NCBI RefSeq assembly: GCF_900636515.1
Contig: NZ_LR134287.1
Span: forward strand, 1,674,001-1,738,000
From: Neisseria animalis
Lineage (GTDB): Bacteria > Pseudomonadota > Gammaproteobacteria > Burkholderiales > Neisseriaceae
Direction: 5' to 3'
Length of the DNA stretch: 64,000 nt
Part shown: piece by piece, positions 13,655 through 61,082 of the stretch
Numbering within the stretch: the stretch's first letter is position 1
Layout of the letters: each line of letters opens with the position of its first letter
The notes under the pieces: model-generated
Database searches by the model: none
What the model was told of the DNA's origin: nothing
Seen by the model: the letters and a program-made list of their open reading frames with translations, nothing else
Made by a program: the position numbers and the translations under genes

Positions 13655-13695
13655 TTTTGCAGACGGCTTTTTCAGAGGTAAGGCCGTCTGCAAAA
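13655..13695. repeat. Inverted pair of uptake sequences between acnD and the EamA gene
   Basis: TTTTGCAGACGGC and GCCGTCTGCAAAA flank a short loop. The stem lies just after the stop of the minus-strand EamA gene. No good T-run follows, so termination is uncertain. Confidence 0.5.
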
Positions 13696-13708
13696 TGAAA
13701 CGGTACGG

Positions 13709-14584: not shown

Positions 14585-14800
14585 GGTTCCGTTCCCGTAT
14601 CCGTACCGCAACCGCCAAACGCATACCGCTCGCAGCCATAGCAGGCGGTACACTCGGTGCGGGCAGCGGATTTGCTGCTTCATCGGCTCAGTCATTCTCT
14701 TTGGATAAAATCAACCGACACGGCCGCAGTAATGATTTTTTCAGACCATAGAGGCCGTCTGCAAATTTTCCGCCAACCTCATCAAGCATGATTGGCGGTA

Positions 14801-15163: not shown

Positions 15164-15372
15164 AGGTTTTCCCAAAAATAACAAGGCAGGCTTCAACCCT
15201 TGTTTCGGCAATCGGCGGGTTGAAACCCACCTTGCTAAGATGGATTGATATTTGCAGACGGCCTTTTTACGCTGCTCGTTCTGCTGAACACGGCAAGCAG
15301 CATTCCGACAGCATCGCGCTGTTTATCCGTTTATCAGCCTTATCCGCCGTCAAAGGCCGTCTGCAAACAACA

Positions 15373-16521: not shown

Positions 16522-16562
16522 GATTTTCTCCTGTTTGTTTCTGCTTATGGTTTGGTTTATTG

Positions 16563-16602
16563 TTTTTCAGACGGCTTTTCGGCGAAACTGCCGTCTGAAA
16601 AA
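16563..16602 (-). terminator. Paired-DUS hairpin between prpB and prpC
   Basis: TTTTTCAGACGGC pairs with GCCGTCTGAAAAA. It could attenuate transcription from prpB into prpC. The words end in GAA, the commoner Neisseria form. Confidence 0.5.
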
Positions 16603-16620
16603 TAAGTGTTTCGGCAGATA

Positions 16621-17496
16621 TTATTTTTGGAACAGTTTGTCCAGCTTCTGCTCGAAATCATGGTAGTTCAAATGCTCGTACAATTCGGCACGGGTCTGCA
16701 TGGTATCGACTACGTTTGCCTGAGTACCGTCGCGCATGATGGCTTCGTACACGTTCAATGCCGCTTTGCTGGCCGCACGGAAAGTGGAAAGCGGATACAG
16801 CACCAATGACACGCCGTTTTCAGCCAATTCCTGCTGGGTATAAAGCGGCGTTGCGCCAAATTCGGTAATATTGGCCAAAACGGGCACTTTTACCGCATCG
16901 GCAAATTTTTTGTACATGGCCAAATCAGTCATGGCTTCCGGGAAAATCATGTCCGCACCGGCTTCCACACAGGCTTGCGCGCGCTCGATGGCGGATTCCA
17001 AACCCTCTACTGCCAGCGCATCGGTACGCGCCATGATGACAAAGTTTTCATCAACACGGGCATCAACGGCTGCTTTAATGCGGTCAACCATTTCATCTTG
17101 CGAAACAATGGCTTTGTTCGGGCGATGACCGCAGCGTTTTTGCGCCACCTGATCTTCGATATGTACCGCCGCCACGCCCGCACGCTCGAAGTTGCGGATG
17201 GTGCGTGCGATATTGAATGCACCGCCCCAACCTACATCAATGTCCACCAGCAACGGCGTATCGACATTATCGGTAATCCGCCGCGCGTCAATCAGCACAT
17301 CTTCCATGGTGGTAATACCCAAATCGGGGATACCGCAAGAACACGCCGCTACGCCGCCGCCGGAAAGATAGATGGCCTTGAAACCGCTGTTGGTCGCCAA
17401 ACGTGCAAAATAAGCGTTGACGCAACCGACTACTGCCAACGGATTGGAATCACGGACGGCTTCACGGAAACGCAAGCCTGCTGATGGTCGGGTCAT
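16621..17496 (-). CDS. prpB: Methylisocitrate lyase PrpB
   Basis: Cleaves 2-methylisocitrate to pyruvate and succinate, the last step of the methylcitrate cycle. Isocitrate-lyase/PEP-mutase superfamily, 291 residues. Visible motifs: [49 protein letters not shown] (KKCGH-like active-site cysteine) and [10 protein letters not shown]. The start at 17496 is preceded by AGAGGAGC; an upstream in-frame ATG at 17571 has no such site. The promoter proposed at 17803-17830 would make prpB the first gene of the transcript with a leader of about 300 bases. Confidence 0.96.
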
Positions 17497-17740
17497 AATA
17501 TGCTCCTCTTTGATTATAGGTTGTTCAGATACTTCAAACTGCGTCTGGAAACTTTTGCAGACGGCATTCAAACTGATTCGGAGCTTGCTTGGCGTATAGA
17601 AAATTATTATTGGTATTTTTAAGAATTACTGATTTGGGGAATGCTGCGCCATCGTTTAACAGAAAACGATTTCAAACGGCTGCTGCCGTAAAATGCAAAA
17701 CAACCTCCCTCAAACCGGAAAAATCAACACAGGGATTGTT

Positions 17741-17752
17741 GCGGTACACCGC
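17741..17752. promoter_or_regulatory. Small palindrome in the prpB leader
   Basis: GCGGT-AC-ACCGC lies about 45 bases downstream of the inferred transcription start of prpB. It could be an operator or a small hairpin; nothing else supports it. Confidence 0.25.
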
Positions 17753-17802
17753 GAGATATTCCTTTGTAAATGTAGTTTGGTGTAATTTTTATGTTTTGTA
17801 AA

Positions 17803-17830
17803 ATCTAAGCGATAATTTTTTCCCTGTCAA
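17803..17830 (-). promoter_or_regulatory. Predicted sigma-70 promoter for prpB
   Basis: On the minus strand TTGACA (17825-17830) and TAGATT (17803-17808) are spaced by 16 bases. The start would be near 17796, leaving a leader of about 300 bases before prpB. The rest of the spacer (17497-18144) holds one uptake sequence near 17860 and no gene I can support. Confidence 0.5.
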
Positions 17831-18144
17831 ATACTTTTTTGCATTTATATCTTACTGATTTGCAGACGGCCTACCGCTGCCGGATTTCATTTAAAATAAA
17901 ACATTATCAAATAACCCCATATATAAAGTGGTTATTTGGTTTTTGAGGGCAAAATACCGGCCAAACCCTTAAAATCGATTATTTTCAAACAATGGGAAAA
18001 ATCAAAAGATGCAGGATAAAAGCGTATTTTGAAACGTTTTTTCAAACACACGGGAGCAATACCGCTCTATCCGGAAAGAAATTTTGCAGGCAATCTTCTG
18101 CAAAGCGTACAGACAAAAAAATAACCGCTGTCAAAGCGGCTGAA

Positions 18145-18220
18145 TGGTGGCCAGAGGCGGAATCGAACCGCCGACACACGGATTTTCAATCCGTTGCTCT
18201 ACCAACTGAGCTATCTGGCC
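18145..18220 (-). tRNA. tRNA-Phe (GAA)
   Basis: A 76-base cloverleaf with encoded CCA. Acceptor GGCCAGA pairs with TCTGGCC, D arm AGCTCAGTTGGTAGAGC, anticodon loop TTGAAAA with GAA at 18187-18185, T arm GGTTCGATTCC. It is identical to the copy 37 bases upstream. Confidence 0.97.
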
Positions 18221-18257
18221 GATATAAGAGGAAAGCGCATGAAATATACAGCCTGAA

Positions 18258-18333
18258 TGGTGGCCAGAGGCGGAATCGAACCGCCGACACACGGATTTTC
18301 AATCCGTTGCTCTACCAACTGAGCTATCTGGCC
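18258..18333 (-). tRNA. tRNA-Phe (GAA), second copy
   Basis: Identical 76-base tRNA-Phe gene with CCA encoded. It is the first gene of a two-tRNA transcript with a sigma-70 promoter just upstream. Confidence 0.97.
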
Positions 18334-18359
18334 TTCGCATATTTCGTTGCAAGACACGC

Positions 18360-18388
18360 ATTAAACCAAAATTCGCACCGTTTCGCAA
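18360..18388 (-). promoter_or_regulatory. Promoter of the tRNA-Phe pair
   Basis: On the minus strand TTGCGA and TTTAAT are spaced by 17 bases. The start would be about 20 bases before the first tRNA. Confidence 0.6.
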
Positions 18389-18558
18389 GCATTCATCAGG
18401 AAAATCTTTACACAAAAACCTAAGCATTTGTTTTCAATTAACTTAAATTTCAGGACAATCAAACCCTCCGCTTTAATCTTTTCCTCTGCCATCTGAAATA
18501 GTGGCAAACCTTTTTTTACGTTACAATATACCGCTCATACCATTACCGCGATATACCT

Positions 18559-19113
18559 ATGCTTTATCAGTTTTTAAAAGATATGTGGGACATTCTGCGC
18601 CTGCACTACCGCAACCCTGAAGAATATATTTACGGGCTGCCCGTAGTGGCGGCGGTATTGCTGCTTTTAGGCGTAATCAACGCGGCCAGTATGGAGCCAT
18701 TATTCGGCAGCGGTACGGCGGCAGTTGTTTTTGCCGTGTTACTGACTGCATTGAAATGGCTGCTGCTAGCGCGCATGATGCAGGCGGTACTGCACCGCTA
18801 TGGTGCGCCCCGCCTGCCGCTGCTCGGCTTTACGCTGCTTTCGGAAGCGCTGGTAATTCCCATGCTGGCGATACTTTATGTACCGCAACTTTCCGCTGTT
18901 TTGCTGTTTTGGCAGATTTGGACGTTTTGGGTTCAAATCATCGGTTTTATGAAAATGGGAAACGTATCAGGCTGGAAAGTCCTGCTCGGCTATGTTGCCT
19001 ACTTCATCGCCACCCTGCTTGCCGGTACCGTATTGCTGCTGGTTTTCGTCATGTTCGGCTGGTTTGATGCCGAATTGCTCAACCAACGCTTGGAAAGTAT
19101 CGTCGCCCAATAA
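18559..19113 (+). CDS. Yip1-like integral membrane protein
   Basis: An inner-membrane protein of 184 residues with about five hydrophobic segments (residues about 28-45, 53-76, 88-108, 112-132 and 140-168). The head DMWDILRLHYRNPEEYIYG and segment FWVQIIGFMKMGN suggest the Yip1 domain group found in many proteobacteria, but this is a resemblance by eye. No enzymatic motif is seen. It is followed by a strong terminator and stands alone. Confidence 0.7.
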   Translation: MLYQFLKDMWDILRLHYRNPEEYIYGLPVVAAVLLLLGVINAASMEPLFGSGTAAVVFAVLLTALKWLLLARMMQAVLHRYGAPRLPLLGFTLLSEALVIPMLAILYVPQLSAVLLFWQIWTFWVQIIGFMKMGNVSGWKVLLGYVAYFIATLLAGTVLLLVFVMFGWFDAELLNQRLESIVAQ

Positions 19114-19126
19114 TATCTGTTTCGGC

Positions 19127-19190
19127 AAAAGCCGTCTGCAAATGGCAGGATAACGCATTTCGTTGCCCCGCCATTTGCAGACGGCTTTTT
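19127..19190 (+). terminator. Long paired-DUS terminator
   Basis: AAAAGCCGTCTGCAAATGGC pairs with GCCATTTGCAGACGGCTTTT and a T-run, a stem of about 20 base pairs after the Yip1-like gene. Confidence 0.75.
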
Positions 19191-19291
19191 CTTCCCAAAC
19201 CTCGATATTGACAGCCGATTAGGAGGATACCAATGATACGGTATCGTATCCCTCAGCCCTTTCCTCGCTCCTAAGGGCATCAGCCGAAGCA

Positions 19292-19768
19292 TTATTTGAA
19301 AAACTGTCCGCAGCAGGCTTTGAATTTTTTACCCGACCCGCAGAAGCACGGCTGTTTCATGGTTGGCAGCGGCACAGTCGGGTCAATAAAATACCAGCGT
19401 CCGCCAATCAATACAAACGCCGAAAGCTCATGGTGTTCGCACGCTTCCCCATCTTCTTGGAAACGCGCCACAAATTCCACTTGTGCATGAATCTTCCCGA
19501 TATGCGGTATATGCTTCAACACCGTCAGCCCCAGCCACCGCGTATTTTCGCTCCATGACCGCAAAGCACGTTTGTCCAACAAATGCTGTTGCACCGGCAC
19601 GGTTGTTTCCACAATATAATCAATATGCTGCAACACATAAGCACAATAGCGCGAGCGCATCAGAGCCTCCGCATCCGCCGCCGTCTGCCGCCCCGTATGC
19701 AGCGGTTCGCAACAAGCGGCATAGCTCCGCCCCGATCCACACAGACAATTTTGCTGATTTTCCATCAT
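19292..19768 (-). CDS. YchJ-family SEC-C motif protein
   Basis: A protein of 158 residues framed by two SEC-C zinc motifs: NCLCGSGRSYAACC at the N-terminus and PCFCGSGKKFKACC at the C-terminus. Between them is the NTF2-like core with ALMRSRYCAYV and RWLGLTVL, typical of the YchJ (UPF0225) family. The biochemical role is unknown. The frame could begin at a TTG at 19771, but tandem ATGs follow at 19768 and 19765. Confidence 0.88.
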   Translation of the reverse strand: MMENQQNCLCGSGRSYAACCEPLHTGRQTAADAEALMRSRYCAYVLQHIDYIVETTVPVQQHLLDKRALRSWSENTRWLGLTVLKHIPHIGKIHAQVEFVARFQEDGEACEHHELSAFVLIGGRWYFIDPTVPLPTMKQPCFCGSGKKFKACCGQFFK

Positions 19769-19956
19769 CAATCATTCCATCAAACAAAGATACATCAATA
19801 CACCATTATATAAGTTTGCGGAGACAACAACACATTACAGACGGCCACAACCGTCTCAAAATGCCGTCTGCATATTACATCAGAGAAAATAATCGGAGCG
19901 CCGCCGCATAAGCTGTTAGAATAGCGGCTTTCGATTTTTGCCTTCCGAGTTTCCGC

Positions 19957-20829
19957 ATGACCGCCACCGTTCAGACCCTCAACCGCCTGCTGCCGCAAAC
20001 CCAATGCAGAGAATGCGGCTACAACGGCTGCCTGCCTTACGCCGAAGCCTTGATCTCGGGCGAAGCGGCAGTCAATCTGTGCGCCCCGGGCGGCGAAGCC
20101 GTTATGCGGGATATTGCCGGCATACTGGGCAAACCCGAATGCACCCCCGCCAAAATCCAAACCAAAGCACTGGCATGGATTGACGAATCTGCCTGTATCG
20201 GCTGCACCGCCTGTATCCGCGCCTGCCCCGTCGATGCCATCATGGGCGCACACAAATTAATGCACACGGTTATCCGCAACGAATGTACCGGCTGCGGACT
20301 TTGCGTTGCCCCCTGTCCTGTTGATTGTATCCATATGCAGCCGGTCGAAACCGACTTTCTGCCACAAGCGCGACACCTTGCCGCAAGCGACAATCCGCGT
20401 TTTGCCGCCGCCGAACACGCCCTGCGCCGTTACGAATGGCAAACCGCGCGCAAACAGCGCGACACTGCCGAGCGCAAAGCCATGCTTGCCGAACGCGAAG
20501 CTGCCACCAAAGCCAAACAGCAGACGGCCTCCGCAACGGAACACCCCGCCAAGCCCGCATTCAACCCGATGGATCTGATTGCCAAGGCCATGTCCAAAGC
20601 ACAAACCCAACAAGAGCGGCTGGTTACCTCTGCCAACAGAGAAACCTTCAAATCGCGCCAACTCGAAGAAGCCAAACAACGCGCCGAGTACCGCCGCGCA
20701 CAACGCGACATAAAATACGGCAACGAAGCCGAAAAAGCCGCCGCACTGGTTTTCCTGCGCCGCTACAAAGCCGAACAGGAAGCCTTAAAAGAAGCGAAAG
20801 AAGCGGAAAAAACCCAAGCAAGCAAATAA
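19957..20829 (+). CDS. RnfB/RsxB-like ferredoxin
   Basis: A protein of 290 residues. The N-terminal four-cysteine Fe-S domain ([16 protein letters not shown] and later LCAPGG) is that of RnfB. Two 4Fe-4S motifs follow, [16 protein letters not shown] and [16 protein letters not shown]. Unlike typical RnfB there is no N-terminal membrane helix. From residue about 150 on, the tail is long, lysine- and alanine-rich and probably coiled ([17 protein letters not shown]). No other rnf/rsx gene lies nearby. It may pass electrons to a soluble partner; the annotation RsxB in related genomes is by similarity. Confidence 0.85.
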
Positions 20830-20866
20830 TGCCCCCTATTTTGGGCAGAAGTGGCAAGCCAATACT

Positions 20867-20938
20867 CAAAGGCCGTCTGCAAATCCGCACCCTACGCCCG
20901 ATACATCACACCACATCGGGCAGCTTTTTGCAGACGGC
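20867..20938 (+). terminator. Paired-DUS terminator after the RnfB-like gene
   Basis: AAAGGCCGTCTGCAAA and TTTTGCAGACGGCAT flank a 40-base loop. Confidence 0.45.
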
Positions 20939-21170
20939 ATATACCGTTTCTCGGCGCAATATCCGCCCTTGTTTTCCCGCCTTATTCGGAAACAATCATA
21001 TCCCACCCTCCGCCTTGCCATATTTCCACCCCATCAAACCCAATACTTTTCACAAATATTCCACCAAACAATCAAATAGTTATATAAAATTACATTACTT
21101 CCCCCATCAAACCCGACAGCCGGCAACCGACAAAAAACCTCTTCCGCCCCACTTTTCAATAAAACATTAA

Positions 21171-21198
21171 TTACACACCGCTACATTTCTGCTATAAT
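21171..21198 (+). promoter_or_regulatory. Promoter of gap
   Basis: TTACAC and TATAAT (21193-21198) are spaced by 16 bases; the start codon is 46 bases further. The rest of the 20830-21243 spacer is AT-rich and shows only the terminator noted. Confidence 0.5.
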
Positions 21199-21243
21199 TT
21201 GCCCGAATTTTGATACACAACCCATCAACAAAAAGGAACGATC

Positions 21244-22275
21244 ATGGGCATTAAAGTTGCCATCAACGGCTACGGCCGTATCGGACGCCAAGTATTACGC
21301 GCCATTTACGATTACAACCTGCAAGACCAGCTTGAAATTGTCGCGGTAAACGCCAGCGGCAGCTTGGAAACCAACGCCCATCTGACCAAATTCGACACCG
21401 TTCACGGCCGCTTCGATGCCGATGTCTCCCACGATGCCACCCACCTGATTATCAACGGCCGCAAAATCCCTTATTTCTCCACCCGCAACCCGGCCGAGCT
21501 GCCGTGGAAAGATTTGGGCGTAGATTTGGTTATGGAATGTACCGGCGCGTTTACCAGCAAATCCAAAGCCAACGTCCACTTGGAAAGCGGCGCGAAAAAA
21601 GTATTGATTTCCGCTCCGGGCGAAAGCGATGTTGACGCTACCGTGGTTTACGGCGTGAACGACGACGTACTCACCGCCGACATGACCGTAGTGTCCAACG
21701 CTTCCTGCACCACCAACTGTCTGGCGCCGGTTGCCAAAGTATTGAGCGAAAGCGTAGGCATCGTAAAAGGCGCGATGACCACTATCCACGCGCTGACCAA
21801 CGACCAAACCGTTACCGACGTGCGCCACAAAGACCTGCGCCGTGCCCGCAGCGGTGTGGAAAACATGATTCCCACCAAAACCGGCGCAGCCAAAGCCGTG
21901 GGCTTGGTATTGCCTGATTTGAAAGGCAAGCTCGACGGTTTGGCGATTCGCGTTCCGACCGTAAACGTCTCTCTGGTAGACTTGAGCTTTACCGCAGGCC
22001 GCGACACCAGCGTGGAAGAAATCAACGAACTGCTGAAAGCCGCTTCGGAAGAAGGCCGTCTGAAAGGCGTATTGGGCTACAACACCCTGCCGCTGGTTTC
22101 CATGGACTTCAACCACACCACCCAAGCCAGCAATTTCGACGCTACCTTAACCAAAGTCGTGGACGGCAACATGGTTAAAGTCTTCGCTTGGTACGACAAC
22201 GAATGGGGCTTCAGCTGCCAGATGCTGCGTACCGCCATGCGTATGTTCGGCTTGGAAGTGCGCCCGTTCGCCTAA
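21244..22275 (+). CDS. gap: Glyceraldehyde-3-phosphate dehydrogenase
   Basis: Converts glyceraldehyde-3-phosphate to 1,3-bisphosphoglycerate. 343 residues. The Rossmann head [17 protein letters not shown], the catalytic [10 protein letters not shown] near residue 155, the histidine in [23 protein letters not shown] and the C-terminal WYDNEWGFS are all present. Residues [11 protein letters not shown] and FDTVHGRF differ from the E. coli GapA style, and suggest one of the two gap paralogues that Neisseria carry; which one I cannot decide. AAAAAGGAACGATC precedes the ATG. Confidence 0.96.
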
Positions 22276-22348: not shown

Positions 22349-22454
22349 ATAGTCATTTAAAATAAGAATAATACAGCGTTGCTTTGCCTTGCCGTACTAT
22401 GTGTACTGTCTGCGGCTTCGCTGCCTTGTCTCATTCTTATTTTATTCGACTATA
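22348..22454 (-). repeat. 107-bp Correia-like element, copy A
   Basis: Ends TATAGTCATTTAAAAT and ATTTTATTCGACTATA form imperfect terminal inverted repeats. The core GCCGTACTATGTGTACTG and CTGCGGCTTCGCTGCC closely resembles the short Correia elements of Neisseria. It directly follows the gap terminator. Confidence 0.85.
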
Positions 22455-22842
22455 TCAATCGGGCAACACAAAACCAAGCAAACCGCAAACCATAGCGGCA
22501 GAAAGGCGCAGCCGCTTTACCGCTTCTGCAACCCAAGCTCATCACCGGCATTCATCATAATATGTGATACAAGGTCTTCAGCCATACCGCCTCCTTAAGC
22601 AGCATCATGAACCATAAAAATTTATCCGTAATAATGACCGTCTGATTGTCGAAACCCGCCGTCTGCCCGCAGAACGACACGGGGTGTATCTTTTATGAAG
22701 CAAAGCCCGCCCTGCCGATACGCCGTTACCGCACCCATTCTGCCGTTCAAATACCCAACACACCAATCCTCACCGCACCATATCCAAAACATACCGCCTT
22801 CACTATAATAAGCATTATCCGATTTCACATTCCTGTTTCACC
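22455..22842. other. Spacer between gap and holC
   Basis: A minus-strand frame (22622-22828, GTG start, 68 codons, containing FWIWCGEDWCVGYL) reads rather like protein but has a stop just before its start and no family match. A TATAAT box for holC is at 22804-22809. Nothing else is seen. Confidence 0.4.
22804..22809 (+). promoter_or_regulatory. -10 element of holC
   Basis: Perfect TATAAT 33 bases before the start codon. Confidence 0.45.
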
Positions 22843-24308: not shown

Positions 24309-24365
24309 TGCATTGAAAACCCATCATCAAATTACACAAGGCTGCAAAACCGCACACAATATAGA

Positions 24366-24472
24366 TATAGTCGAATAAAATAAGAATGAGACAAGGCAGC
24401 GAAGCCGCAGACAGTACACATAGTACGGCAAGGCAAAGCAACGCTGTATCATTCTTATTTTAAATGACTATA
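24366..24472 (+). repeat. 107-bp Correia-like element, copy B
   Basis: Same length and terminal sequences as copy A but in the opposite orientation, starting TATAGTCGAATAAAAT. Confidence 0.85.
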
Positions 24473-25499: not shown

Positions 25500-25596
25500 C
25501 TGTATTGAATCAGCCTTAATCCGCCCGTTCCGGCAAAACAGGCAGGCACATCACGGCTGCTCACCGCCATACCGCCTGATTAAACGCTTTTTCGGA

Positions 25597-25703
25597 TATA
25601 GTCGAATAAAATAAGAATGAGACAAGGCAGCGAAGCCGCAGACAGTACACATAGTACGGCAAGGCAAAGCAACGCTGTATCATTCTTATTTTAAATGACT
25701 ATA
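25597..25703 (+). repeat. 107-bp Correia-like element, copy C
   Basis: Essentially identical to copy B, in the convergent spacer between purN and the Nramp-like gene. Confidence 0.85.
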
Positions 25704-29357: not shown

Positions 29358-29652
29358 GAGACCTTGGCAAAAAAACAAGAAACGAACCAAACTGATACTA
29401 GAGGTAAATTTTATAGTCGAATAAAATAAGAATGAGACAAGGCAGCGAAGCCGCAGACAGTACACATAGTACGGCAAGGCAAAGCAACGCTGTATCATTC
29501 TTATTTTAAATGACTATACACCCGCTCGCTTACTTGAGCTTTTTCGCTTGCTTGGGCTTTTTGAAGTTATAACTTTCAAGGTATTTATTAAATTTTCGGG
29601 CGGGTGTAAAACCCGTCCCTACAAGCCCTTGTCATGAATTTTGCAAAGGTCT
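29358..29652. mobile_element. Possible remnant bounded by IS5-type inverted ends
   Basis: GAGACCTTGGCAAAA at the left faces TTTTGCAAAGGTCTC at the right, one mismatch in 15. GAGACCTTTGCAAAA resembles, from memory, the ends of IS1106-like IS5-family elements of Neisseria. No transposase remains; the interior holds the 107-bp element copy D and low-complexity sequence. Confidence 0.4.
29412..29518 (+). repeat. 107-bp Correia-like element, copy D
   Basis: Full-length copy, same orientation as B and C, within the putative IS5-type remnant. Confidence 0.85.
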
Positions 29653-39051: not shown

Positions 39052-39158
39052 TATAGTCATTTAAAATAAGAATGATACAGCGTTGCTTTGCCTTGCCGTA
39101 CTATCTGTACTGCCTGCGGCTTCGCTGCCTTGTCTCATTCTTATTTTATTCGACTATA
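39052..39158 (-). repeat. 107-bp Correia-like element, copy H
   Basis: Full-length copy. It ends two bases from the serB stop codon. Confidence 0.85.
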
Positions 39159-39160
39159 TT

Positions 39161-44985: not shown

Positions 44986-46533
44986 ATGAAACTCACCCGC
45001 AAGCTCGAACATTATCTGCAAATGCCGCTGCTGCACTGGCCGCTGATTGTCCTGATTGCCGCAGCCACGCCGCTGACTTTTGCCCCCTATTACCACTTCT
45101 GGCTGATGCCGCTGCTGTTTGCTGCACTTATCCGCCTGATTGAGCTGCGCCCCCAACGTGCCGTACCAACCGCCTACCTGTTCGGGCTGGTTGCCTACAC
45201 CTGCCAATTTTACTGGGTACATACCGCCCTGCACGAGGTTTCCGGCCTGCCCAACCTTTACGCCCTGCCCATGACCCTGCTGCTGCCGGCGTTTCTCGCA
45301 CTCTATCCCGCACTCTGCTTCTGGTTGTGGAAAAAATTCCATCACGCCCGCTGGCTAAAAACCGGCCTTATCCTGCCGATACTCTGGACGCTCACCGAAT
45401 ACCTGCGCGAAACCCTGTTTACCGGATTCGGCTGGGGCGCGCTCGGCTACTCCCAAATTACCAAATCCAGCCCGCTCTCCGGCTTTGCGCCTGTCGGCGG
45501 CATCCATCTCGTTACCCTTGCCACAGCCTTTATCGGCGCATGGCTTGCCTTGCTGATCAACAACCCCGGCCGTCTGAAAAACCGCGTAATGCCCTTGTGT
45601 TTCAGCTTGGCCGTCGTTACCGCCGGCTACATTTTCCAAGAAACCGATTTTACCCGCGAAGACGGCACAACCAGCACCGTTGCCCTCGTTCAGGGCAATA
45701 TCGCCCAAACCCTCAAATGGGAAGAAGAGCAAGTCATTCCCACCATACAAAAATACTACGAACACGTCAGCAAAACCCGAGCAGACATCGTGATTCTGCC
45801 CGAAACCGCCCTGCCCGTCATGCGCCAAAACCTGCCCAACGGCATACTCTCCCAATTTGCCGAACAAGCCCAAAGCAACGGCAGCGCACTCGCACTCGGC
45901 ATCAGCCAGTACACCGAAGACGGCAACGGCTACGAAAACGCCGTCGTCAACCTTTACCGTTACCACGGCGAAGCCACCCCGCCCTACTACGCCAAAAACC
46001 ACCTCGTCCCATTTGGCGAATACAAACCCCTGAGCGCTGTTACCGCCCCGCTTTACAAACTGATGAATATGCCCCTGTCCGATTTCAAAAGCGGCGGGAA
46101 AAACCAAACCCCCTTACACATGAAAGGCCAAAAAGTCGCCTTCAATATCTGCTATGAAGACGGCTTCGGCGACGAACTCATCGCCACCGCCCGCCAATCC
46201 ACCCTGCTTGCCAACGTCAGCAACATGGCTTGGTACGGCGATTCCAACGCCATGTTCCAGCAGCTCCAGCAATCCCAAGCACGCGCCATGGAACTCGGCC
46301 GCTACATGGTACGCGCCACCAATACCGGTGCCACCGCCATCATTTCACCCAAAGGCAACATCATCGCCGCAGCCGAACCCAATACCGAAACCGTATTGGA
46401 AGGCCATATTAAAGGTTACACCGGCGAAACCCCCTACATGAAAATGGGTGGCTCAAACTGGCTGGCCGGCAGCTTGGCCGTACTGGCGGTATTGCTGTTT
46501 GTGTGCCGCAGACGTATACATGAAGCAGATTAA
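44986..46533 (+). CDS. lnt: Apolipoprotein N-acyltransferase
   Basis: 515 residues. Lnt adds the third acyl chain to lipoproteins. The first 200 residues hold about six membrane helices (LIVLIAAATPLTFAPYYHFW, GFGWGALGYSQ). The nitrilase domain contains the catalytic glutamate in ILPETALPV, the lysine in KNHLVPFGEY and the cysteine in NICYEDGFGDE, then TLLANVSNMAWYGDS. A last helix lies near residue 490. The ATG at 44986 directly follows a GTCGTCTG-type uptake sequence. Confidence 0.95.
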   Translation: MKLTRKLEHYLQMPLLHWPLIVLIAAATPLTFAPYYHFWLMPLLFAALIRLIELRPQRAVPTAYLFGLVAYTCQFYWVHTALHEVSGLPNLYALPMTLLLPAFLALYPALCFWLWKKFHHARWLKTGLILPILWTLTEYLRETLFTGFGWGALGYSQITKSSPLSGFAPVGGIHLVTLATAFIGAWLALLINNPGRLKNRVMPLCFSLAVVTAGYIFQETDFTREDGTTSTVALVQGNIAQTLKWEEEQVIPTIQKYYEHVSKTRADIVILPETALPVMRQNLPNGILSQFAEQAQSNGSALALGISQYTEDGNGYENAVVNLYRYHGEATPPYYAKNHLVPFGEYKPLSAVTAPLYKLMNMPLSDFKSGGKNQTPLHMKGQKVAFNICYEDGFGDELIATARQSTLLANVSNMAWYGDSNAMFQQLQQSQARAMELGRYMVRATNTGATAIISPKGNIIAAAEPNTETVLEGHIKGYTGETPYMKMGGSNWLAGSLAVLAVLLFVCRRRIHEAD

Positions 46534-46545
46534 GCAGCTTGCTAT

Positions 46546-46598
46546 AAAAAGGCCGTCTGAAGTTGGTTACTGAACGTAATCCAATTTCAGACGGCCTA
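46546..46598. terminator. Bidirectional terminator between lnt and the Dnd-like operon
   Basis: GGCCGTCTGAAGTTGG pairs with CCAATTTCAGACGGCC, a stem extended beyond the uptake words. Both words end GAA, unlike most in the window. It ends both lnt and the minus-strand ATPase gene. Confidence 0.75.
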
Positions 46599-46609
46599 GT
46601 CACAACTGA

Positions 46610-48178
46610 TTAAATATCAAACCCGTGCATAAAATAAGGCGACCCGTTATTCCACTTGACCAAATGGTCACCTTTACCGAGTAATTTCTCTGCCCCTGTT
46701 TCGTCCAGAATGATTTTAGATTCAGTAGATTTTTGCACACTCAGGGCAATTCGAACCGGCAGATTGCTGCGCAGCGTTCCGTCTAAAGTCTGCGCATCCG
46801 GACGTTGCGTTGCCAAAATCAAATGAATACCGGAAGCACGAGCTTTTTCCGCCAACATCATCAACTGTTTTTCGATACCGTTGTGCTGCTTTTTCAAATT
46901 GGCCAACTCGTCTACCACAATAACACGGTAGCGCGGGCGAACGGATAACGGCAACTGGCTGATTTTTTGTGCGCCATACTGTTTCATCAGCGAATAGCGC
47001 TGCTCGGATTCATTCACCGAATCAACCAAAAATTGATACATCTCATCATAATCATCTAAAATCCGCTCTTCCCATAAATCTTCTTCTTTTTCAAAGACCA
47101 GATAATCCACCTTTTTCGGATCAAGAATGGCAACATCCAATTTATCCTGACCTTTGCACAAATCAAACAAACTGCGCAGCATGGTACGCAAAAATACGGA
47201 TTTGCCCGAGCCGGTCGTTCCGCCCACCAACAAATGCGGAGCAGCGGCCAAATCTTCAAAATGCGCTTTACCGTATTCATCTATGCCCACACATACCGGC
47301 AAAATATAATCTTGGTCGTATCCCTCCAGCGCTTCGGCAAATTTGGTCGCACCGAGCTTGTGCCACTGCTTTTCAGGACGCAACAATTTGACATCATATG
47401 CATGACTTTCATTGTTATAACACGGTACGATATGCAGCGCATTTTCTTTAATCCCAAGCTCAGAACACAAACCCTGATGATATTTTTCCAAATCGGCATA
47501 TTTGCTCAACCGCAGACGGTAAATATCATAACGCGCTCCGGCGTGGCTGAAATTCAACTCTCTCACAGGAATACCCAAGCGTTGGAACGCACCGCGCAAA
47601 TACTGTTCCCGGTTTTCAGACAGCACCTCGCTATCCGTATCGGCAAGGCCGTCTGTAAAATGGGCTTTCCCGGCATTTTTAACGGCCAACTCAGTCAATT
47701 CATTCAAAAACGCCTGCCGCGCCTCCAAATCAGAATCGGGCTTGAAGCGTTTGCATCCCTCCCAGAAACTATCCAATTCGACCGCACCCGTATGCCAAAG
47801 CGTTTGAATCAATGTATATAAATCATCTTTGGTGACAGCTTTATCGGGATTTAAGCGGAACAAAGTTTCACTCAGCAAAGCCAGCCACAGTCGTGAGTAA
47901 TCCTGAAAACAGGTTTGGAAAGAGGGTATCTCTATCCCACCCTTTCCTGTCGGCGCAGGAATCAAACGGTGTGACGATTCAGTAAAGCCCTTAGCAAAAC
48001 AATAACCGATACACAGCATCGCCCAATCGAAATTATTATCCAATGGCGGCAACGCTCCCGAATCCATCAATTTTTCACGAATATCTTTCGCTTCCTTACT
48101 GGAAATAATCCGCTTCTCACCCATCAGCGTATGGAAATAATCAGTATCCCAGCCGTTTATATTGTCCACTTGGTACAT
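46610..48178 (-). CDS. FtsK/HerA-like ATPase of the Dnd-like operon
   Basis: 522 residues. A RecA-type motor of the FtsK/SpoIIIE group: Walker A VGGTTGSGKSVFLRTML near residue 315, Walker B RVIVVDELANL, then LMMLAEKARASGIHLILATQRPD and LDGTLRSNLPVRIALSV. The first 80 residues (ISSKEAKDIREKLMD, FDWAMLCIGYCFAKGF) look faintly like the nick-binding protein DndE, so this may be a DndE-motor fusion. The middle region (RLGIPVRELNFSHAGARYDIYRLRL) is of the kind seen before FtsK motors. There is no membrane segment. It is the last gene, 11 bases after dndD. Confidence 0.85.
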   Translation of the reverse strand: MYQVDNINGWDTDYFHTLMGEKRIISSKEAKDIREKLMDSGALPPLDNNFDWAMLCIGYCFAKGFTESSHRLIPAPTGKGGIEIPSFQTCFQDYSRLWLALLSETLFRLNPDKAVTKDDLYTLIQTLWHTGAVELDSFWEGCKRFKPDSDLEARQAFLNELTELAVKNAGKAHFTDGLADTDSEVLSENREQYLRGAFQRLGIPVRELNFSHAGARYDIYRLRLSKYADLEKYHQGLCSELGIKENALHIVPCYNNESHAYDVKLLRPEKQWHKLGATKFAEALEGYDQDYILPVCVGIDEYGKAHFEDLAAAPHLLVGGTTGSGKSVFLRTMLRSLFDLCKGQDKLDVAILDPKKVDYLVFEKEEDLWEERILDDYDEMYQFLVDSVNESEQRYSLMKQYGAQKISQLPLSVRPRYRVIVVDELANLKKQHNGIEKQLMMLAEKARASGIHLILATQRPDAQTLDGTLRSNLPVRIALSVQKSTESKIILDETGAEKLLGKGDHLVKWNNGSPYFMHGFDI

Positions 48179-48189
48179 TCTTTTCCCCT

Positions 48190-50241
48190 TTATTCAAAAT
48201 ACACATCGGCAACGACACGCGAGCGCGCCCCCGCACTGTCTAAAGATTCCGCCTCCACGAGATAAGTACGGCTGACATGAGGTTCTAAACGTCGGCACAC
48301 TTCCGGTGTAATTTCCGTATCCTGAGACAATAAAATTACCTGCTGATCCAAATTACACCAGTGCCTGAACAAACCTTCCCGATGTCCTTCATCCAAACGT
48401 GCCAGAGGGGTATCGATGATAAACGGCGCATGATAACGGGTTACTTCCGCCAGAGCCGATACCAGCGACATAATTAAAATCTGCATTTGCCCTGCTGACA
48501 AATCTACACGTGACTCATAGCCGTCTCGACCAAAGATACCCATACGCCCATCGCTTTCCACACGGATTCTGTCGATACGCTCGTCATGCGCAATGGCACG
48601 ATTGATACGCGTTGCCGCTTCACCAACTTCTTTAACTTTCCTTTTCAGCAGTTCCTCAGTCAAACGGATAATCACCTTATCCACTTCACCCGCTCTGCGT
48701 GATTTAAGCAGGCGCGGATTACTGTCGCTGATTTTATCCTGTAAATCCCCGACCTCTTTCTGAAAGCGTTGGTAGTCTTTCTTTTGGCGGATAACATTAC
48801 TGTTCAGATAGCCTACCTGCTCTTTAAATTTTTCCGTCTCTTCATTGGTTTTTTTCAACTGTTCAACCAATTCGTCTTTATTGGTTCCTCTCAGTAATTC
48901 GATTTCTGCCAAAATCTTTTTGCGCTCCTCCTCCCGTTTTTCATTTTCAGCCAAAAATGTACCGATCTGCTCTTGCGGCATTCCCCGTAACCGGCTGATT
49001 TCGTTTTGAATCTCAGCATGAGCATTAACCGATAGATAATTGTGTTCAATCTTATCGGCACATTCGGACGGCAGAGGATAAAATAAATCCTCCCAGCAGT
49101 CTTTGACCGCCTCTTTCATCAAAGGCTGGCTCAAAATCATATTGGCCATTGCCCCCAACGCCTGATTGACTTTATCGCTGGAAACAAACGCATTCCAAAA
49201 ATCATCTACTTTTTCAGCAATTTGGTTTTTGCCTGCTTCATGATTCAGGCGGTTTTTCTCTTTTTGCAACTGCTGCTGCAATACTTTCAAATTTTCCCTA
49301 GGTAAAAATGCCAACGGCATAGCCTTAATCGCAGCCTTAACCTTTTCCTCGAATTCGGCCATTTCTTTTTCCAGCCGTTCACGTTGACGCAGTAAATCTT
49401 CAGAAGTACGGATATCGCTGCCGCCACCCAACTGCTGCATCAGTTGTTCGCGCTTAGCTGCCGCCTGCTGCCATTTTTTATCTGCTTCAGCAAACTCTTC
49501 CTGCGTCACTTGCAAAACCGCTTCTGCCGATTGCAGGTTGGTTTCCGCCTTACGCAAATCATCCTGCATTTTTGCGGTTGCCCCTTCGGAAATACATTTA
49601 CTGCGGTAATCTTTCAGACTGACCCGCAGTTTTTCCAATAATGTTACACCCAACAAACCTTTCAGCGCGGTATTCAACCATAAACCGGTGCCGCTCTGCT
49701 GCGCCGTTTGAACGATTTTCTCGCCGTCAAAAAAGAAAAACGGCGCATAATCAAACGGCAGAGCAAATGCGTTGATGTATTTGTCAAGATCTTTTTCATC
49801 AATCAGATTATAGACGCCGTTTTTCATGATTTCAGCGGTTACACTGCTGCCGTACTCACCCGAGAATACATTGCGGTCGCTTCCAAAATGCCACTTTCTC
49901 CGGATACGCAAGCCGTGTTGGGCTTCACGGTAATTCTGGCGGATTTCGATTTCCAAACTCATGGTGTACTGGCCGTATTTGGTTTCGGCTTCGTGATACA
50001 GGGCAGATTTAAGAAATTCGGGATAACTGCTTTTCTGCGTATTCAAACCCGCACGCTGCAAGTGGCTGATAGCATCTTTGCCGTACAGGCACAAATAAAC
50101 CGCTTCTAAAAGCGTGGTTTTGCCATGGCCGTTTTGTGCACCGATTAACACGATATTTTTACCATCTTCAGGCGTGGGAAAACTGAATGCAGCATTATCG
50201 TAAGATTTGAAGTTGCGTAATTTGATTGAATGAATCCACAT
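48190..50241 (-). CDS. dndD: DndD-like SMC-type ATPase, DNA sulfur modification
   Basis: 683 residues. The N-terminal ABC half carries LRNFKSYDNAAFSF and Walker A LIGAQNGHGKTTLLEAVYLCLYGKDA, the DndD hallmark. Long coiled coils (about 210-300 and 400-520, such as EKREEERKKILAEIELLRG) flank a central hinge, and the C-terminal half has LSAGQMQILIMSLVSAL (signature) and FIIDTPLARLDEGHR (Walker B/D-loop). DndD supplies ATP hydrolysis and DNA nicking or strand handling in phosphorothioation. It starts five bases after the small gene, so it is cotranscribed. Base composition is AT-richer than the surrounding core genes. Confidence 0.92.
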   Translation of the reverse strand: MWIHSIKLRNFKSYDNAAFSFPTPEDGKNIVLIGAQNGHGKTTLLEAVYLCLYGKDAISHLQRAGLNTQKSSYPEFLKSALYHEAETKYGQYTMSLEIEIRQNYREAQHGLRIRRKWHFGSDRNVFSGEYGSSVTAEIMKNGVYNLIDEKDLDKYINAFALPFDYAPFFFFDGEKIVQTAQQSGTGLWLNTALKGLLGVTLLEKLRVSLKDYRSKCISEGATAKMQDDLRKAETNLQSAEAVLQVTQEEFAEADKKWQQAAAKREQLMQQLGGGSDIRTSEDLLRQRERLEKEMAEFEEKVKAAIKAMPLAFLPRENLKVLQQQLQKEKNRLNHEAGKNQIAEKVDDFWNAFVSSDKVNQALGAMANMILSQPLMKEAVKDCWEDLFYPLPSECADKIEHNYLSVNAHAEIQNEISRLRGMPQEQIGTFLAENEKREEERKKILAEIELLRGTNKDELVEQLKKTNEETEKFKEQVGYLNSNVIRQKKDYQRFQKEVGDLQDKISDSNPRLLKSRRAGEVDKVIIRLTEELLKRKVKEVGEAATRINRAIAHDERIDRIRVESDGRMGIFGRDGYESRVDLSAGQMQILIMSLVSALAEVTRYHAPFIIDTPLARLDEGHREGLFRHWCNLDQQVILLSQDTEITPEVCRRLEPHVSRTYLVEAESLDSAGARSRVVADVYFE

Positions 50242-50246
50242 ATTTC

Positions 50247-50465
50247 TTATTTCCAGTATTTTGAATTACCAAAAACATCATCAAACATATCCGTCATCCC
50301 GCGACGGCGTATTTTCTCCTGCTGCTCCCGTTCCCATGCTACCAACTCTGCGATGGCATCTACTGCTACCCCATGCTCAAGCGCAATCTCTTCCATCAGC
50401 TTTTTAGCCTCCGGCTCACTCCACAGCAGCAAATCGCCGACTTGTTCCTGTATTTCCGTATTCAT
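50247..50465 (-). CDS. Small protein associated with the Dnd-like operon
   Basis: 72 residues, acidic, mainly helical: MNTEIQEQVGDLL, EAKKLMEEIALEHG, AIAELVAWEREQQEKIRRRG. It is not DndE by sequence. Small proteins in this position, between dndC and dndD, are known from other DNA-modification operons, but without a defined role. The start overlaps the dndC stop by four bases (ATGA), so it is translationally coupled and likely made in proportion to DndC. Confidence 0.8.
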   Translation of the reverse strand: MNTEIQEQVGDLLLWSEPEAKKLMEEIALEHGVAVDAIAELVAWEREQQEKIRRRGMTDMFDDVFGNSKYWK

Positions 50466-51580
50466 GCATTTTTCCTTGTGTAAGTCTGGATAAGGTCTTG
50501 CGCCCAAATCTGTTTGATAAGTTCGATTTCTTCCTGAGTGATTAACTCGTTGCCGTAGGCCGTCTGCACATCCAGCAACCGCTGTAAAATCATCTGTCGT
50601 GCTTCCACAGTAAACGGGCCGGGAATATGCTTGCCCTGCTTGATGGTTACCGTACCGTTTCGCCGTTCCACCTGCCGGTATTCCGGCAGATTCCGAATTT
50701 CCACCAACCAATCACGAAATTCAATCAAAGGCTGATATTCTGTTTTTCCCACATCAACAAAACCCTGCAAACTCTTATCTTTATTGACCACCGTACAAGT
50801 CCAGCAACCAAATCTGCTGGAATTGGTGCCGCAACCGGGTGCTTCGTCTTGAGACAACACAATCGGACACTCTCCGCCCGCCGCTTCGCGGTACAACTTA
50901 ATCAGGCTGTCGTGCGTACCTCCCCAAGGCGGATTGTGCGAAGCGAGAAACTCCCATACGTCATCGGTACTCAAATCGACAATCGGCCGGTACACAAAGG
51001 CATTTGCCAAGCTGCTGTGCGGAGTCAGATTGGAGTTTTCAATATTTTGATGGCTCTCAATACTGGCTTTTCGGGTAGCCGATTCATCCTTACGCACGCC
51101 CAAAATAATGATGGCAGCACCGCTTTCACTCACTTTGTTTTTGATAAAACCACTGGTCGGTTCGATTTTCAAACGGTCGGTACACCAGCGCATACTTCGG
51201 TTGGGTGAGGGATAACCTTTGCCAATCAATAACGTCCAAAAAGTTTCGCTTAATTTGGGCGTAGTCACTTCACCATTAACGGGCAACTTATAAATTTCAG
51301 CGGCACGCAGGATTTTTTCCAATGTGCCGCGCATATGCTGCACCACCAGCGGACTTTCTACCAAAGTATCGTTTGAAACAAAATGAACTTGGCGGCGGCG
51401 TAACGATGGAGGAAGTTCCAACAAGGCTTCAAAAACAAGATGGGCAACCAGTGTGCTGTCTTTACCGCCGGAGAATGTAACTATCCATGGATAAGTTTGG
51501 ACATCACTTAAATATTCTTCAATAATTGATTGGCGGATTAAAGAGAGCGGTGTCTCCTGATGTATTGGTATGATATTCAT
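50462..51580 (-). CDS. dndC: DndC-like PAPS-reductase-family protein, DNA sulfur modification
   Basis: 372 residues. The PP-loop WIVTFSGGKDSTLVAHL near residue 32 activates DNA by adenylation. Next come RWCTDRLKIEP, GVRKDESATRKASI, PIVDLSTDDVWEFLA, and the cysteine set CGTNSSRFGCWTCTVV with ECPIVL before it, the DndC 4Fe-4S ligands. It is shorter than the roughly 500 residues I recall for DndC of Streptomyces or Salmonella, lacking much of the C-terminus. A cysteine desulfurase (DndA or IscS) must come from elsewhere. The start has no clear ribosome site and lies close to the inferred transcription start. Confidence 0.92.
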   Translation of the reverse strand: MNIIPIHQETPLSLIRQSIIEEYLSDVQTYPWIVTFSGGKDSTLVAHLVFEALLELPPSLRRRQVHFVSNDTLVESPLVVQHMRGTLEKILRAAEIYKLPVNGEVTTPKLSETFWTLLIGKGYPSPNRSMRWCTDRLKIEPTSGFIKNKVSESGAAIIILGVRKDESATRKASIESHQNIENSNLTPHSSLANAFVYRPIVDLSTDDVWEFLASHNPPWGGTHDSLIKLYREAAGGECPIVLSQDEAPGCGTNSSRFGCWTCTVVNKDKSLQGFVDVGKTEYQPLIEFRDWLVEIRNLPEYRQVERRNGTVTIKQGKHIPGPFTVEARQMILQRLLDVQTAYGNELITQEEIELIKQIWAQDLIQTYTRKNA

Positions 51581-51589
51581 ATATGATAT

Positions 51590-51620
51590 TTTATATTATT
51601 TGCACCTAAAATGGGAGCAA
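51590..51620 (-). promoter_or_regulatory. Predicted promoter of the Dnd-like operon
   Basis: On the minus strand TATAAA (51590-51595) lies nine bases before the dndC ATG. The best -35 (TTGCTC, 51615-51620, 19-base spacing) falls in operator 1. The transcript would have almost no leader. Confidence 0.5.
51600..51620. promoter_or_regulatory. Operator 1 of the XRE regulator
   Basis: TTGCACC-TAAAATG-GGAGCAA, a 7-7-7 palindrome with one mismatch, between the divergent regulator and dndC. It overlaps the inferred -35 of dndC. Confidence 0.75.
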
Positions 51621-51626
51621 ATAGCA

Positions 51627-51647
51627 TTGTACCTAAAATTGGTGCAA
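51627..51647. promoter_or_regulatory. Operator 2 of the XRE regulator
   Basis: TTGTACC-TAAAATT-GGTGCAA, the same 21-bp palindrome again, 27 bases from operator 1. It reaches the first possible start codon of the regulator gene, which favours the later ATG at 51656 and suggests autorepression. Confidence 0.75.
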
Positions 51648-51655
51648 TGAGGAAT

Positions 51656-51949
51656 ATGCGCTTATCAGTACACTCTGTCGAACTGACTTACCTACGGCAT
51701 TTATTTACCCAGCGTCGCTTGGAATTAGGCTTATCCCAACGCGCGTTGGCAGACCGTTTAGGGGTGGTTTATTCGTTTATTGGAAAAGTTGAAACAGGAG
51801 ACCGCCGTTTGGATATTTTTGAATTTGTACAATACTGTACGGGTTTGGAATGGAATGCTTTGGAAGTTTTACAAGATCTGATGTCGGTATGCGAGCAGCA
51901 AAATAATCATTTTCTTTTAACCGCATTGCCCACATCACAATTAAAATGA
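51656..51949 (+). CDS. XRE-family helix-turn-helix regulator
   Basis: 97 residues. The HTH is LRHLFTQRRLELGLSQRALADRLGVVYSFIGKVETGDRRLDIFEF, residues about 11-55, an almost complete Cro/C1-type domain, followed by a short tail. Transcribed away from the Dnd-like operon and facing two operators, it is the likely repressor of both itself and the operon. AATGAGGAA precedes the ATG at 51656. Alternative starts at 51647 and 51611 would place operators inside the gene. Confidence 0.88.
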   Translation: MRLSVHSVELTYLRHLFTQRRLELGLSQRALADRLGVVYSFIGKVETGDRRLDIFEFVQYCTGLEWNALEVLQDLMSVCEQQNNHFLLTALPTSQLK

Positions 51950-52045
51950 TAAAGATAGACATTAAAAAATAACTCAAAATAATATTGACTGCCAAATGCT
52001 CCAACCACCCTCCCCCCTTTTGCACCATTATCATGAATTGAAAAT

Positions 52046-52085
52046 AAAAAGGCCGTCTGCAAAATTTTGCAGACGGCCTTTTTGC
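52046..52085. terminator. Bidirectional paired-DUS terminator
   Basis: AAAAAGGCCGTCTGCAAAA and TTTTGCAGACGGCCTTTTT meet with almost no loop, between the XRE gene and secB. Confidence 0.8.
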
Positions 52086-52109
52086 TTCAAAATGCAACGG
52101 TTACGCAAG

Positions 52110-52544
52110 TTATGCGTTACCTTCTTGCTGCTGTTGGTACAACGCTTCAAAGTTGATGGGGGCAAGCAATACCGGCGGGAAACCGGCGCGGGTAACGGTA
52201 CTGGAGATGGCTTCGCGCGCATAGGGGAACAAAATGTTCGGGCAGGCTACGCCAAGCAGCAGTTGGGCATCTTCTTCGGGAATGTTCTCCAAACGGAAAA
52301 TACCGCTTTGGGTTACTTCGTTTAAGAACATGGTGCGTTCGCTGTTCAACTTGGCCGTTACCGTGATGGTTACGTCCACGCTGTAAATGCCGTCTTCCAG
52401 CTTGGCATTGGTGGTCGATACGCGCATATCAACTTCAGGCTCGCCGTTTTCCAAGAAAATCTGCGGCGCATGCGGTACTTCCAAAGACAAATCTTTAACG
52501 TACAGTCGCTCGATACTGAATACGGGTTGCAGTTCTTCTGACAT
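52110..52544 (-). CDS. secB: Protein-export chaperone SecB
   Basis: 144 residues. SecB tetramers hold preproteins unfolded and hand them to SecA. Typical segments are [22 protein letters not shown] at the start, [10 protein letters not shown] and the C-terminal half with [39 protein letters not shown]. The start MSEELQP at 52544 matches the family; five more codons are open upstream. grxC lies 23 bases upstream on the same strand, as in many proteobacteria. Confidence 0.96.
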
Positions 52545-54705: not shown

Positions 54706-54721
54706 GCTTGGATACAGAAAA

Positions 54722-54828
54722 TATAGTCGAATAAAATAAGAATGAGACAAGGCAGCGAAGCCGCAGACAGTACACATAGTACGGCAAGGCAAAGCAACGC
54801 TGTATCATTCTTATTTTAAATGACTATA
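54722..54828 (+). repeat. 107-bp Correia-like element, copy I
   Basis: Full-length copy. It ends six bases from the stop codon of the BCCT transporter. Confidence 0.85.
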
Positions 54829-60958: not shown

Positions 60959-61065
60959 TATAGTCATTTAAAATAAGAATGATACAGCGTTGCTTTGCCT
61001 TGCCGTACTATGTGTACTGTCTGCGGCTTCGCTGCCTTGTCTCATTCTTATTTTATTCGACTATA
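60959..61065 (-). repeat. 107-bp Correia-like element, copy J
   Basis: Full-length copy 37 bases after greB, same orientation as copies A, F and H. Confidence 0.85.
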
Positions 61066-61082
61066 TTATCTTCGGTATAATC

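What the first reader, a model, noticed from the sequence alone, without database searches (positions are those of the whole stretch)
46610..51949. Compact Dnd-like DNA phosphorothioation operon with its own regulator and no neighbouring dndA, dndB or restriction genes
The sequence shows XRE regulator, then divergently dndC, a 72-residue gene, dndD and an FtsK/HerA-like ATPase, with overlaps or gaps of -4, 5 and 11 bases. DndC and DndD families are known to insert sulfur into the DNA backbone. Here the usual DndA, DndB and a separate DndE are missing, as are Dpt restriction genes. The segment is AT-richer than its flanks (lnt and secB), which suggests acquisition. It could be a modification-only, epigenetic or minimal defence system that borrows IscS.
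Basis: partly seen in the sequence, partly recalled or inferred. Interest (0 to 1): 0.82.

Follow-up and report, generated by a model that had tools for sequence, protein, structure and literature searches.

The report
Mix-and-match DNA sulfur-tagging gene cassette
A Neisseria-like bacterium carries a compact gene set predicted to put sulfur into its DNA backbone, and relatives appear to swap the DNA-scanning part and the motor part of this machine independently, which offers a natural way to test what decides where the sulfur goes.

Summary
The operon is real; gene limits and the -4/5/11 spacings are as described. But DndE is not missing: it is the first ~170 residues of the "FtsK/HerA" protein, followed by a complete FtsK-type motor. 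DndE fused to HerA/FtsK beside dndD is in print, so this is a Dnd phosphorothioation system of a described subclass. The genome has iscS; models for DndB, one DndH and SspE-type (GmrSD_N) proteins found nothing. Modification-only is plausible, unproven.

Two things I saw in no paper searched. (1) The 72-residue protein looks like a detached piece of DndC: its profile matches the C-terminal stretch of long DndCs reported to bind DndD, which this short DndC lacks. (2) Across related cassettes three units assort: DndC, the block SP-DndD-DndE domain, and the motor. Two relatives (about 96.6% DNA identity at two control loci) share site, DndC and motor (99%) but their blocks are 36-46% identical; one of these blocks recurs, 90-98% identical, in another genus with a different motor. 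Crossovers fall inside the fused gene. Tree tests reject common descent of the parts (p-AU 2e-7 to 1e-73).

Sulfur in the DNA, and whether the block sets target sites, are untested.

The parts
51611..51949 (+). XRE-type regulator gene, divergent from dndC (true start may lie further in: most sister proteins are 86-104 aa)
   Evidence: HTH_3 28.9 bits, cut-off 23; divergent XRE homologue in 12 of 13 other genus loci; lengths
51581..51610 (.). gap between the two divergent start codons; promoter/operator region presumably here or inside the annotated XRE start
   Evidence: coordinates; function inferred
50462..51580 (-). dndC, 372 aa: sulfurtransferase core without the C-terminal ~100-170 residues of long DndCs
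   Evidence: TIGR03183 381.2 bits, matched to position 364 of 447; SGGKD, specificity-loop residues NRS, Cys 133, 238, 250, 259, 262; alignment with five long DndCs
50247..50465 (-). sp, 72 aa: small protein, read here as the detached DndD-binding tail of DndC
   Evidence: Pfam Sp-DndD 45.1 bits; hhalign to long DndC, probability 93.1%, score 50.6, best of 60 column shuffles 22.8
48190..50241 (-). dndD, 683 aa: SMC/Rad50-like ABC ATPase
   Evidence: TIGR03185 252.9 bits, just over its cut-off 245.85; best PADLOC model is labelled PbeC, 389.8 bits, best DndD model 286.5; LSAGQ and IIDTPLARLD, no CxC or CxxC
46610..48178 (-). dndE::ftsK, 522 aa: DndE domain fused to an FtsK-type translocase
47669..48178 (-). 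DndE domain (residues 1-170 of the fused protein)
47621..47668 (-). linker (residues 171-186, pLDDT under 50), where crossovers cluster in relatives
46613..47620 (-). FtsK alpha-like region and motor (residues 187-522)
   Evidence: FtsK_SpoIIIE 292-460; Foldseek E 1.6e-25 to E. coli FtsK motor
47579..50503 (-). region equivalent to the block exchanged between L063 and L064 (dndC codon ~360 to fused-gene codon ~200)
   Evidence: mapped by homology; not an exchange observed in the window itself
46552..46595 (.). inverted pair of GCCGTCTGAA after ftsK, probably a terminator (recalled use in Neisseria)

Best explanation
A stand-alone Dnd phosphorothioation cassette. Inferred working: IscS, encoded elsewhere, supplies sulfur to DndC; DndC is docked on the DndD ATPase not by its own tail but by the separate 72-residue protein, which is that tail on its own gene; DndD with the DndE domain binds and scans DNA; the FtsK motor fused to DndE drives the complex along double-stranded DNA; the XRE protein regulates the operon. 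In the family the cassette evolves by exchanging whole units: XRE with DndC core, the block SP-DndD-DndE, and the motor. Shown here: gene content, the DndE and FtsK folds, the SP-to-DndC-tail match, and the exchange. Inferred: sulfur insertion, docking, translocation, regulation, and what the exchanged block changes.
For: Families over cut-off. DndE by relatives and by fold. FtsK motor fold. IscS present. SP profile to DndC 438-491 of an E. coli DndC, score 50.6 against at most 22.8 in controls, overlapping residues 433-482 that PMC12193691 assigns to DndD binding, with L458, E462 and R471 present. Exchange: L063/L064 DndC 99, SP 46, DndD 38, DndE 36, motor 99% identity; L064/L204 96/91/90/98/45; nucleotide profile; AU tests; correlations over 12 loci, 66 pairs: SP, DndD, DndE 0.94-0.98 among themselves, 0.34-0.53 with DndC or motor.
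Confidence: 0.72

Rival explanations
1. The exchanged SP-DndD-DndE block does not change target sites; it is replaced to escape inhibitors made by phages or plasmids, while DndC alone sets the core motif.
For: The DndC loop called the specificity loop in PMC12193691 (abstract and passages) reads NRS in both L063 and L064, and NRS or NRN in all 14 genus loci. A phage protein against a Dnd system is reported in PMC12345140 (abstract start only).
Against: PMC10853773 section 15 (read) argues from DndE's variable DNA face for target choice by DndE. No inhibitor is known here.
Confidence: 0.3
2. The FtsK motor is the defence arm: PT marks self, and the motor acts on unmarked incoming double-stranded DNA (pumping or blocking) without a nuclease.
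For: Complete motor; no DndH-model match in 17 of 17 cassette genomes; PADLOC's nearest models for this protein include SspH, 143.5 bits, matched in its last ~200 positions.
Against: Helicase-fused DndEi is reported as essential for PT itself (title of Zheng 2016 seen in reference lists; paper not held). The motor is exchanged independently of the DNA-binding block.
Confidence: 0.12
3. It is a CxC/PbeABCD-type restriction or suicide system with DndC as an added arm.
For: Best PADLOC model of the ATPase is labelled PbeC (389.8 against 286.5 bits for DndD); SP genes are also described in CxC systems (PMC10853773 section 16).
Against: No CxC or CxxC in the ATPases of the 14 genus loci; no nuclease-helicase gene beside the operon; dndC is the best conserved gene in most pairs; PADLOC gives PbeC labels to many DndD-like proteins.
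Confidence: 0.05
4. No exchange took place: SP, DndD and DndE merely evolve faster than DndC.
For: DndC is the slowest part in most pairs.
Against: Motor and block change places as the divergent part (L063/L064 against L064/L204 and L056/L057); DNA identity jumps from about 45% to 100% inside one gene; AU p 3e-60, 2e-42, 1e-73, 9e-10, 2e-7 (groups chosen after seeing identities).
Confidence: 0.02

Closest known systems
Dnd systems with HerA/FtsK fused to DndE ('clade-3' HerA/FtsK; Rakesh, Aravind and Krishnan 2024, PMC10853773; abstract, passages, sections 14-16 read)
   Same: DndE and a HerA/FtsK ATPase in one polypeptide beside a DndD-related ATPase
   Different: The passages and sections I read do not say that SP is a DndC tail, or that block and motor are exchanged; Neisseria is not named in the main text (0 occurrences)
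DndEi (helicase-fused DndE; Zheng 2016, paper not held, seen as cited in PMC7464106 and PMC5316992)
   Same: DndE with an added ATPase/helicase domain in a PT modification cluster
   Different: I could not compare sequences; whether its added domain is FtsK-type is unknown to me
Canonical DndABCDE / DptBCDE
   Same: DndC, DndD and DndE chemistry; IscS can replace DndA (PMC3519819, passages)
   Different: Long DndC with its own tail, separate DndE, often DndB and DndFGH; here short DndC plus SP, fused motor, no DndB or DndH match
CxC-ATPase / PbeABCD systems
   Same: SP gene and a DndD-like ATPase-DndE pair
   Different: No CxC motif, no PbeA-type gene beside the operon, dndC present
Type I restriction specificity-subunit exchange (recalled)
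   Same: Works like: one conserved enzyme core with an exchanged DNA-binding part
   Different: Unrelated proteins, no nuclease here, effect on specificity unproven; likeness only, not membership

Membership tests
Dnd phosphorothioation modification system | DndC sulfurtransferase | tested here: met
   TIGR03183 381.2 bits, cut-off 290.4; SGGKD and five conserved cysteines
Dnd phosphorothioation modification system | DndD ATPase | tested here: met
   TIGR03185 252.9 bits, cut-off 245.85, narrowly; PADLOC prefers a PbeC label
Dnd phosphorothioation modification system | DndE | tested here: met
Dnd phosphorothioation modification system | A cysteine desulfurase (DndA or IscS) | tested here: met
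   IscS at C1:1265934-1267016, TIGR02006 696.8 bits, cut-off 643.2; no dndA in the operon
Dnd phosphorothioation modification system | Phosphorothioate in the DNA | not testable with these tools
   Needs LC-MS or iodine cleavage
DndE-HerA/FtsK fusion subclass | DndE and HerA/FtsK in one polypeptide next to a DndD-like gene | tested here: met
DndEi | Helicase/ATPase activity needed for PT | not testable with these tools
   Motor fold only
DndFGH-coupled Dnd restriction-modification | DndH in the genome | tested here: not met
   0 of 17 cassette genomes with one PADLOC DndH model; the control rang in 5 of 14 genomes. DndF and DndG not searched
DndFGH-coupled Dnd restriction-modification | DndB | tested here: not met
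   PF14072: 0 in the own genome; control rang in 2 of 14
Ssp system | SspE-type (GmrSD_N) protein in the genome | tested here: not met
   0 in the own genome; 6 of 17 cassette genomes have one, not tied to the cassette here
CxC/PbeABCD system | CxC motif in the ATPase | tested here: not met
   No CxC in the 14 genus loci
CxC/PbeABCD system | PbeA (HKD nuclease with SF2 helicase) in the genome | not tested
   Not searched genome-wide; no such gene among the ORFs beside the operon

The most novel reading that the evidence does not exclude
A phosphorothioation system with a plug-in recognition block: SP (a DndC tail on its own gene), DndD and the DndE domain travel as one unit that decides which sites are modified, while the sulfurtransferase and the DNA motor are kept or exchanged separately, so Neisseria-family lineages change their sulfur epigenome in one recombination step, as type I systems do with specificity subunits.
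Probability: 0.35. Interest if true: 0.8.

Novelty: new variant of a known kind. Interest (0 to 1): 0.6.

Why it matters
What sets the site choice of phosphorothioation is argued in two ways in the papers seen here: a loop of DndC (PMC12193691) or the variable DNA face of DndE (PMC10853773). G013 and G037 are a natural experiment: same chromosomal site, DndC core 99% and motor 99% identical, but an exchanged SP-DndD-DndE block. Mapping PT in such a pair would address the question directly. The detached DndC tail would also give a job to a small protein that databases name only by its neighbourhood.

Tried and rejected
DndE absent: rejected.

Clean empty site at lnt-secB: not found. No Lnt match within about 1.5 kb of secB in the 29 relatives' loci fetched (of 45 genus genomes with secB). 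Of 29 relatives' lnt loci fetched (of 45 relatives), 28 share one other downstream gene and one ends 139 bases after lnt; I read that gene as a sigma-32 gene from its translation (name recalled). So the window's junction is rearranged, not a simple insertion into a conserved gap.

Partner nuclease in the flanks: among 14 genus loci, flanking gene families recur in at most 4, and these come from shared sites or from reading frames opposite XRE. This was BLAST among the loci and reading; the neighbours were not annotated by HMM.

TusA as partner: a TusA-family gene follows ftsK in Aureimonas and Rhizobium (Pfam for the first) but not in the window; the genome has one TusA-family gene elsewhere, under the NCBIfam TusA cut-off. 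PMC3519819 passages report iscS as the only gene required among the deletions tested.

Genome-contig scan: 80 loci of which most look like ordinary FtsK by partial match; not used.

DUS as cause of the swaps: GCCGTCTGAA lies at dndC codon 338 in five loci and at the equivalent place in a sixth, and in the DndE-motor linker of three, among 12 loci examined, but the swap pair L063/L064 has none at either junction and the window has none inside the four genes, so this is only suggestive.

Print searches for module exchange or SP as a DndC tail: (listings and abstract starts), 8, 34 and passages of PMC10853773; none seen. The library is open-access only.
Full report
1. What is there. The window lies in a one-contig 2,240,945-bp genome (C1:1674001-1738000); named matches of the FtsK-like protein are mostly Neisseria. 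dndC, sp and dndD pass curated cut-offs. The FtsK-like protein carries FtsK_SpoIIIE at residues 292-460.

3. The small protein as DndC's tail. Long DndCs from five records are 476-544 aa; DndCs of loci with sp examined here are 355-386 aa (cut-off or truncated copies aside) and end about where the C-terminal part of the long ones begins (alignment). A profile of SP sequences aligns to E. coli DndC 438-491 with probability 93.1%, E 3.1e-7, score 50.6. Controls: best of 60 column shuffles 22.8, reversed 18.1, DndD 13.2, DndE-FtsK 19.5, short DndC 9.8; SPs from outside the genus alone 55.6, genus SPs alone 35.4. DndC models had already given the window's SP weak hits at their C-terminal ends (E 0.003-0.008). 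PMC12193691 (passages) predicts that DndC residues 433-482 of E. coli B7A bind the DndD globular domain and reports that L458D/E462A/R471A disrupts binding; the E. coli sequence used here has L458, E462 and R471. I infer that SP docks DndC on DndD in trans.

4. Distribution. A dndC homologue was found in 14 of 46 genus genomes and 17 of 83 family genomes, own genome included. Of 13 genus loci besides the window, 9 have all five genes open; L061 has the fused gene in two ORFs, L065 ends with its contig inside dndD, L066 lacks the start of dndC and the XRE gene, L067 is broken in several genes. A divergent XRE homologue is in 12 of 13. Sp-DndD was found in 4 of 369 genomes drawn from the class, own included. 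The order dndC-sp-dndD-DndE/FtsK occurs on plasmids of Aureimonas, Burkholderia glumae and Rhizobium phaseoli. L183 has XRE, dndC, sp, dndD and a 528-aa protein with DndE (24.1 bits, just under cut-off) and a HerA-type (DUF87) region.

5. Three units assort. Amino-acid identities as DndC 1-335 / SP / DndD / DndE 1-170 / motor 216-end: L063 with L064 99/46/38/36/99; L064 with L204 (another genus of the family) 96/91/90/98/45; L063 with L204 96/43/38/36/44; L056 with L057 94/82/87/83/47. L063 and L064 share the chromosomal site (93.5% over an 8.4-kb and 93.7% over a 5.7-kb match on the two sides); the two genomes are 96.7% and 96.5% identical at secB and lnt. The 150-base profile is 97-100% through XRE and most of dndC, with a dip to 90%, falls near dndC codon 360, stays at 40-69% to about codon 200 of the fused gene, and returns to 97-100% for the rest of the motor. 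The last residues of DndC change with the block. Over 12 loci and 66 pairs (L066 and L206 left out; L061, L065 and L067 not entered), identities of SP, DndD and DndE correlate at 0.94-0.98 (0 of 5000 permutations); all pairs with DndC or motor lie at 0.34-0.53 (18-60 of 5000 permutations reach them), including DndE with the motor of the same polypeptide, 0.36. Tree tests (quick trees; groups named after seeing identities): L063 with L064 in the DndD tree p-AU 3e-60, with L062 added 2e-42; in the motor tree L064 with L204 1e-73, L056 with L057 9e-10, window with L055-L057 2e-7; in the DndC tree L064 with L204 is not rejected (0.17). Among 116 fused proteins, the window's DndE part is 91% identical to that of P0032 while the motors are 50%.

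6. What may drive it. The loop called the specificity loop in PMC12193691 reads NRS or NRN in the 14 genus loci and NRS in both L063 and L064; neither equals the patterns that paper ties to known motifs (passages), NRS being nearest to its TRS (GAAC/GTTC). If that loop alone sets the core motif, the exchanged block would alter flanking preference, scanning or sensitivity to inhibitors. If DndE sets it, as PMC10853773 section 15 argues (read), the motif changes. The sequence cannot decide.

7. Sulfur source and missing partners. IscS is present over cut-off, and IscS supports dptBCDE in E. coli (PMC3519819, passages). One DndH model matched in 0 of 17 cassette genomes, DndB in 0 of 1 (own), GmrSD_N not in the own genome but in 6 of 17. 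DndF, DndG, PbeA and PT-reading HNH nucleases were not searched. Modification-only is compatible with these data, not proven.

8. Verdict. A known chemistry in a described fusion subclass, with two additions: a DndC apparently split into core and docking tail, and exchange of scanning block and motor between cassettes. Novelty is marked as a new variant for these additions; the fusion itself is published.

Noticed in passing
window 22392-22459, 24361-24428, 25595-25659, 29412-29474, 39096-39159, 54721-54784, 61003-61066: Near-identical ~65-base dispersed repeats on both strands; they look like a Correia-type repeat (name recalled).
   Followed up: partly
window 46533-52110: lnt is followed here by the cassette, whereas 28 of 29 relatives' lnt loci share another downstream gene that I read as sigma-32; the own copy of that gene was not looked for.
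   Followed up: partly
L067 (G007): Cassette in pieces: dndC, dndD and dndE::ftsK each fall in several ORFs, a decaying copy.
   Followed up: no
L061 (G016): dndE::ftsK lies in two overlapping ORFs while the other genes are open.
   Followed up: no
L185 (Moraxella osloensis plasmid) 3271-7276 and 17536-21540: A cassette of this type is interrupted by two copies of a transposase gene pair and bordered by Tn3-family genes.
   Followed up: partly
L051 13932-14168 and L053 13992-14195: A TusA-family sulfurtransferase gene directly follows the DndE/FtsK gene on Aureimonas and Rhizobium plasmids, which suggests a sulfur relay; PMC10853773's main text has no occurrence of TusA.
   Followed up: partly
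L182 9986-14318 and L184 3187-7412: sp-type loci with a DndD-like ATPase and a ~510-aa HerA/TrwB-like protein (in L182 with a clear DndE domain, 34.7 bits) but no dndC beside them.
   Followed up: partly
L054 (Mesorhizobium amorphae plasmid) 7838-18562: One locus holds dndA, short dndC, dndD-dndE, then sp, a second DndD-like ATPase and an FtsK-type protein.
   Followed up: no
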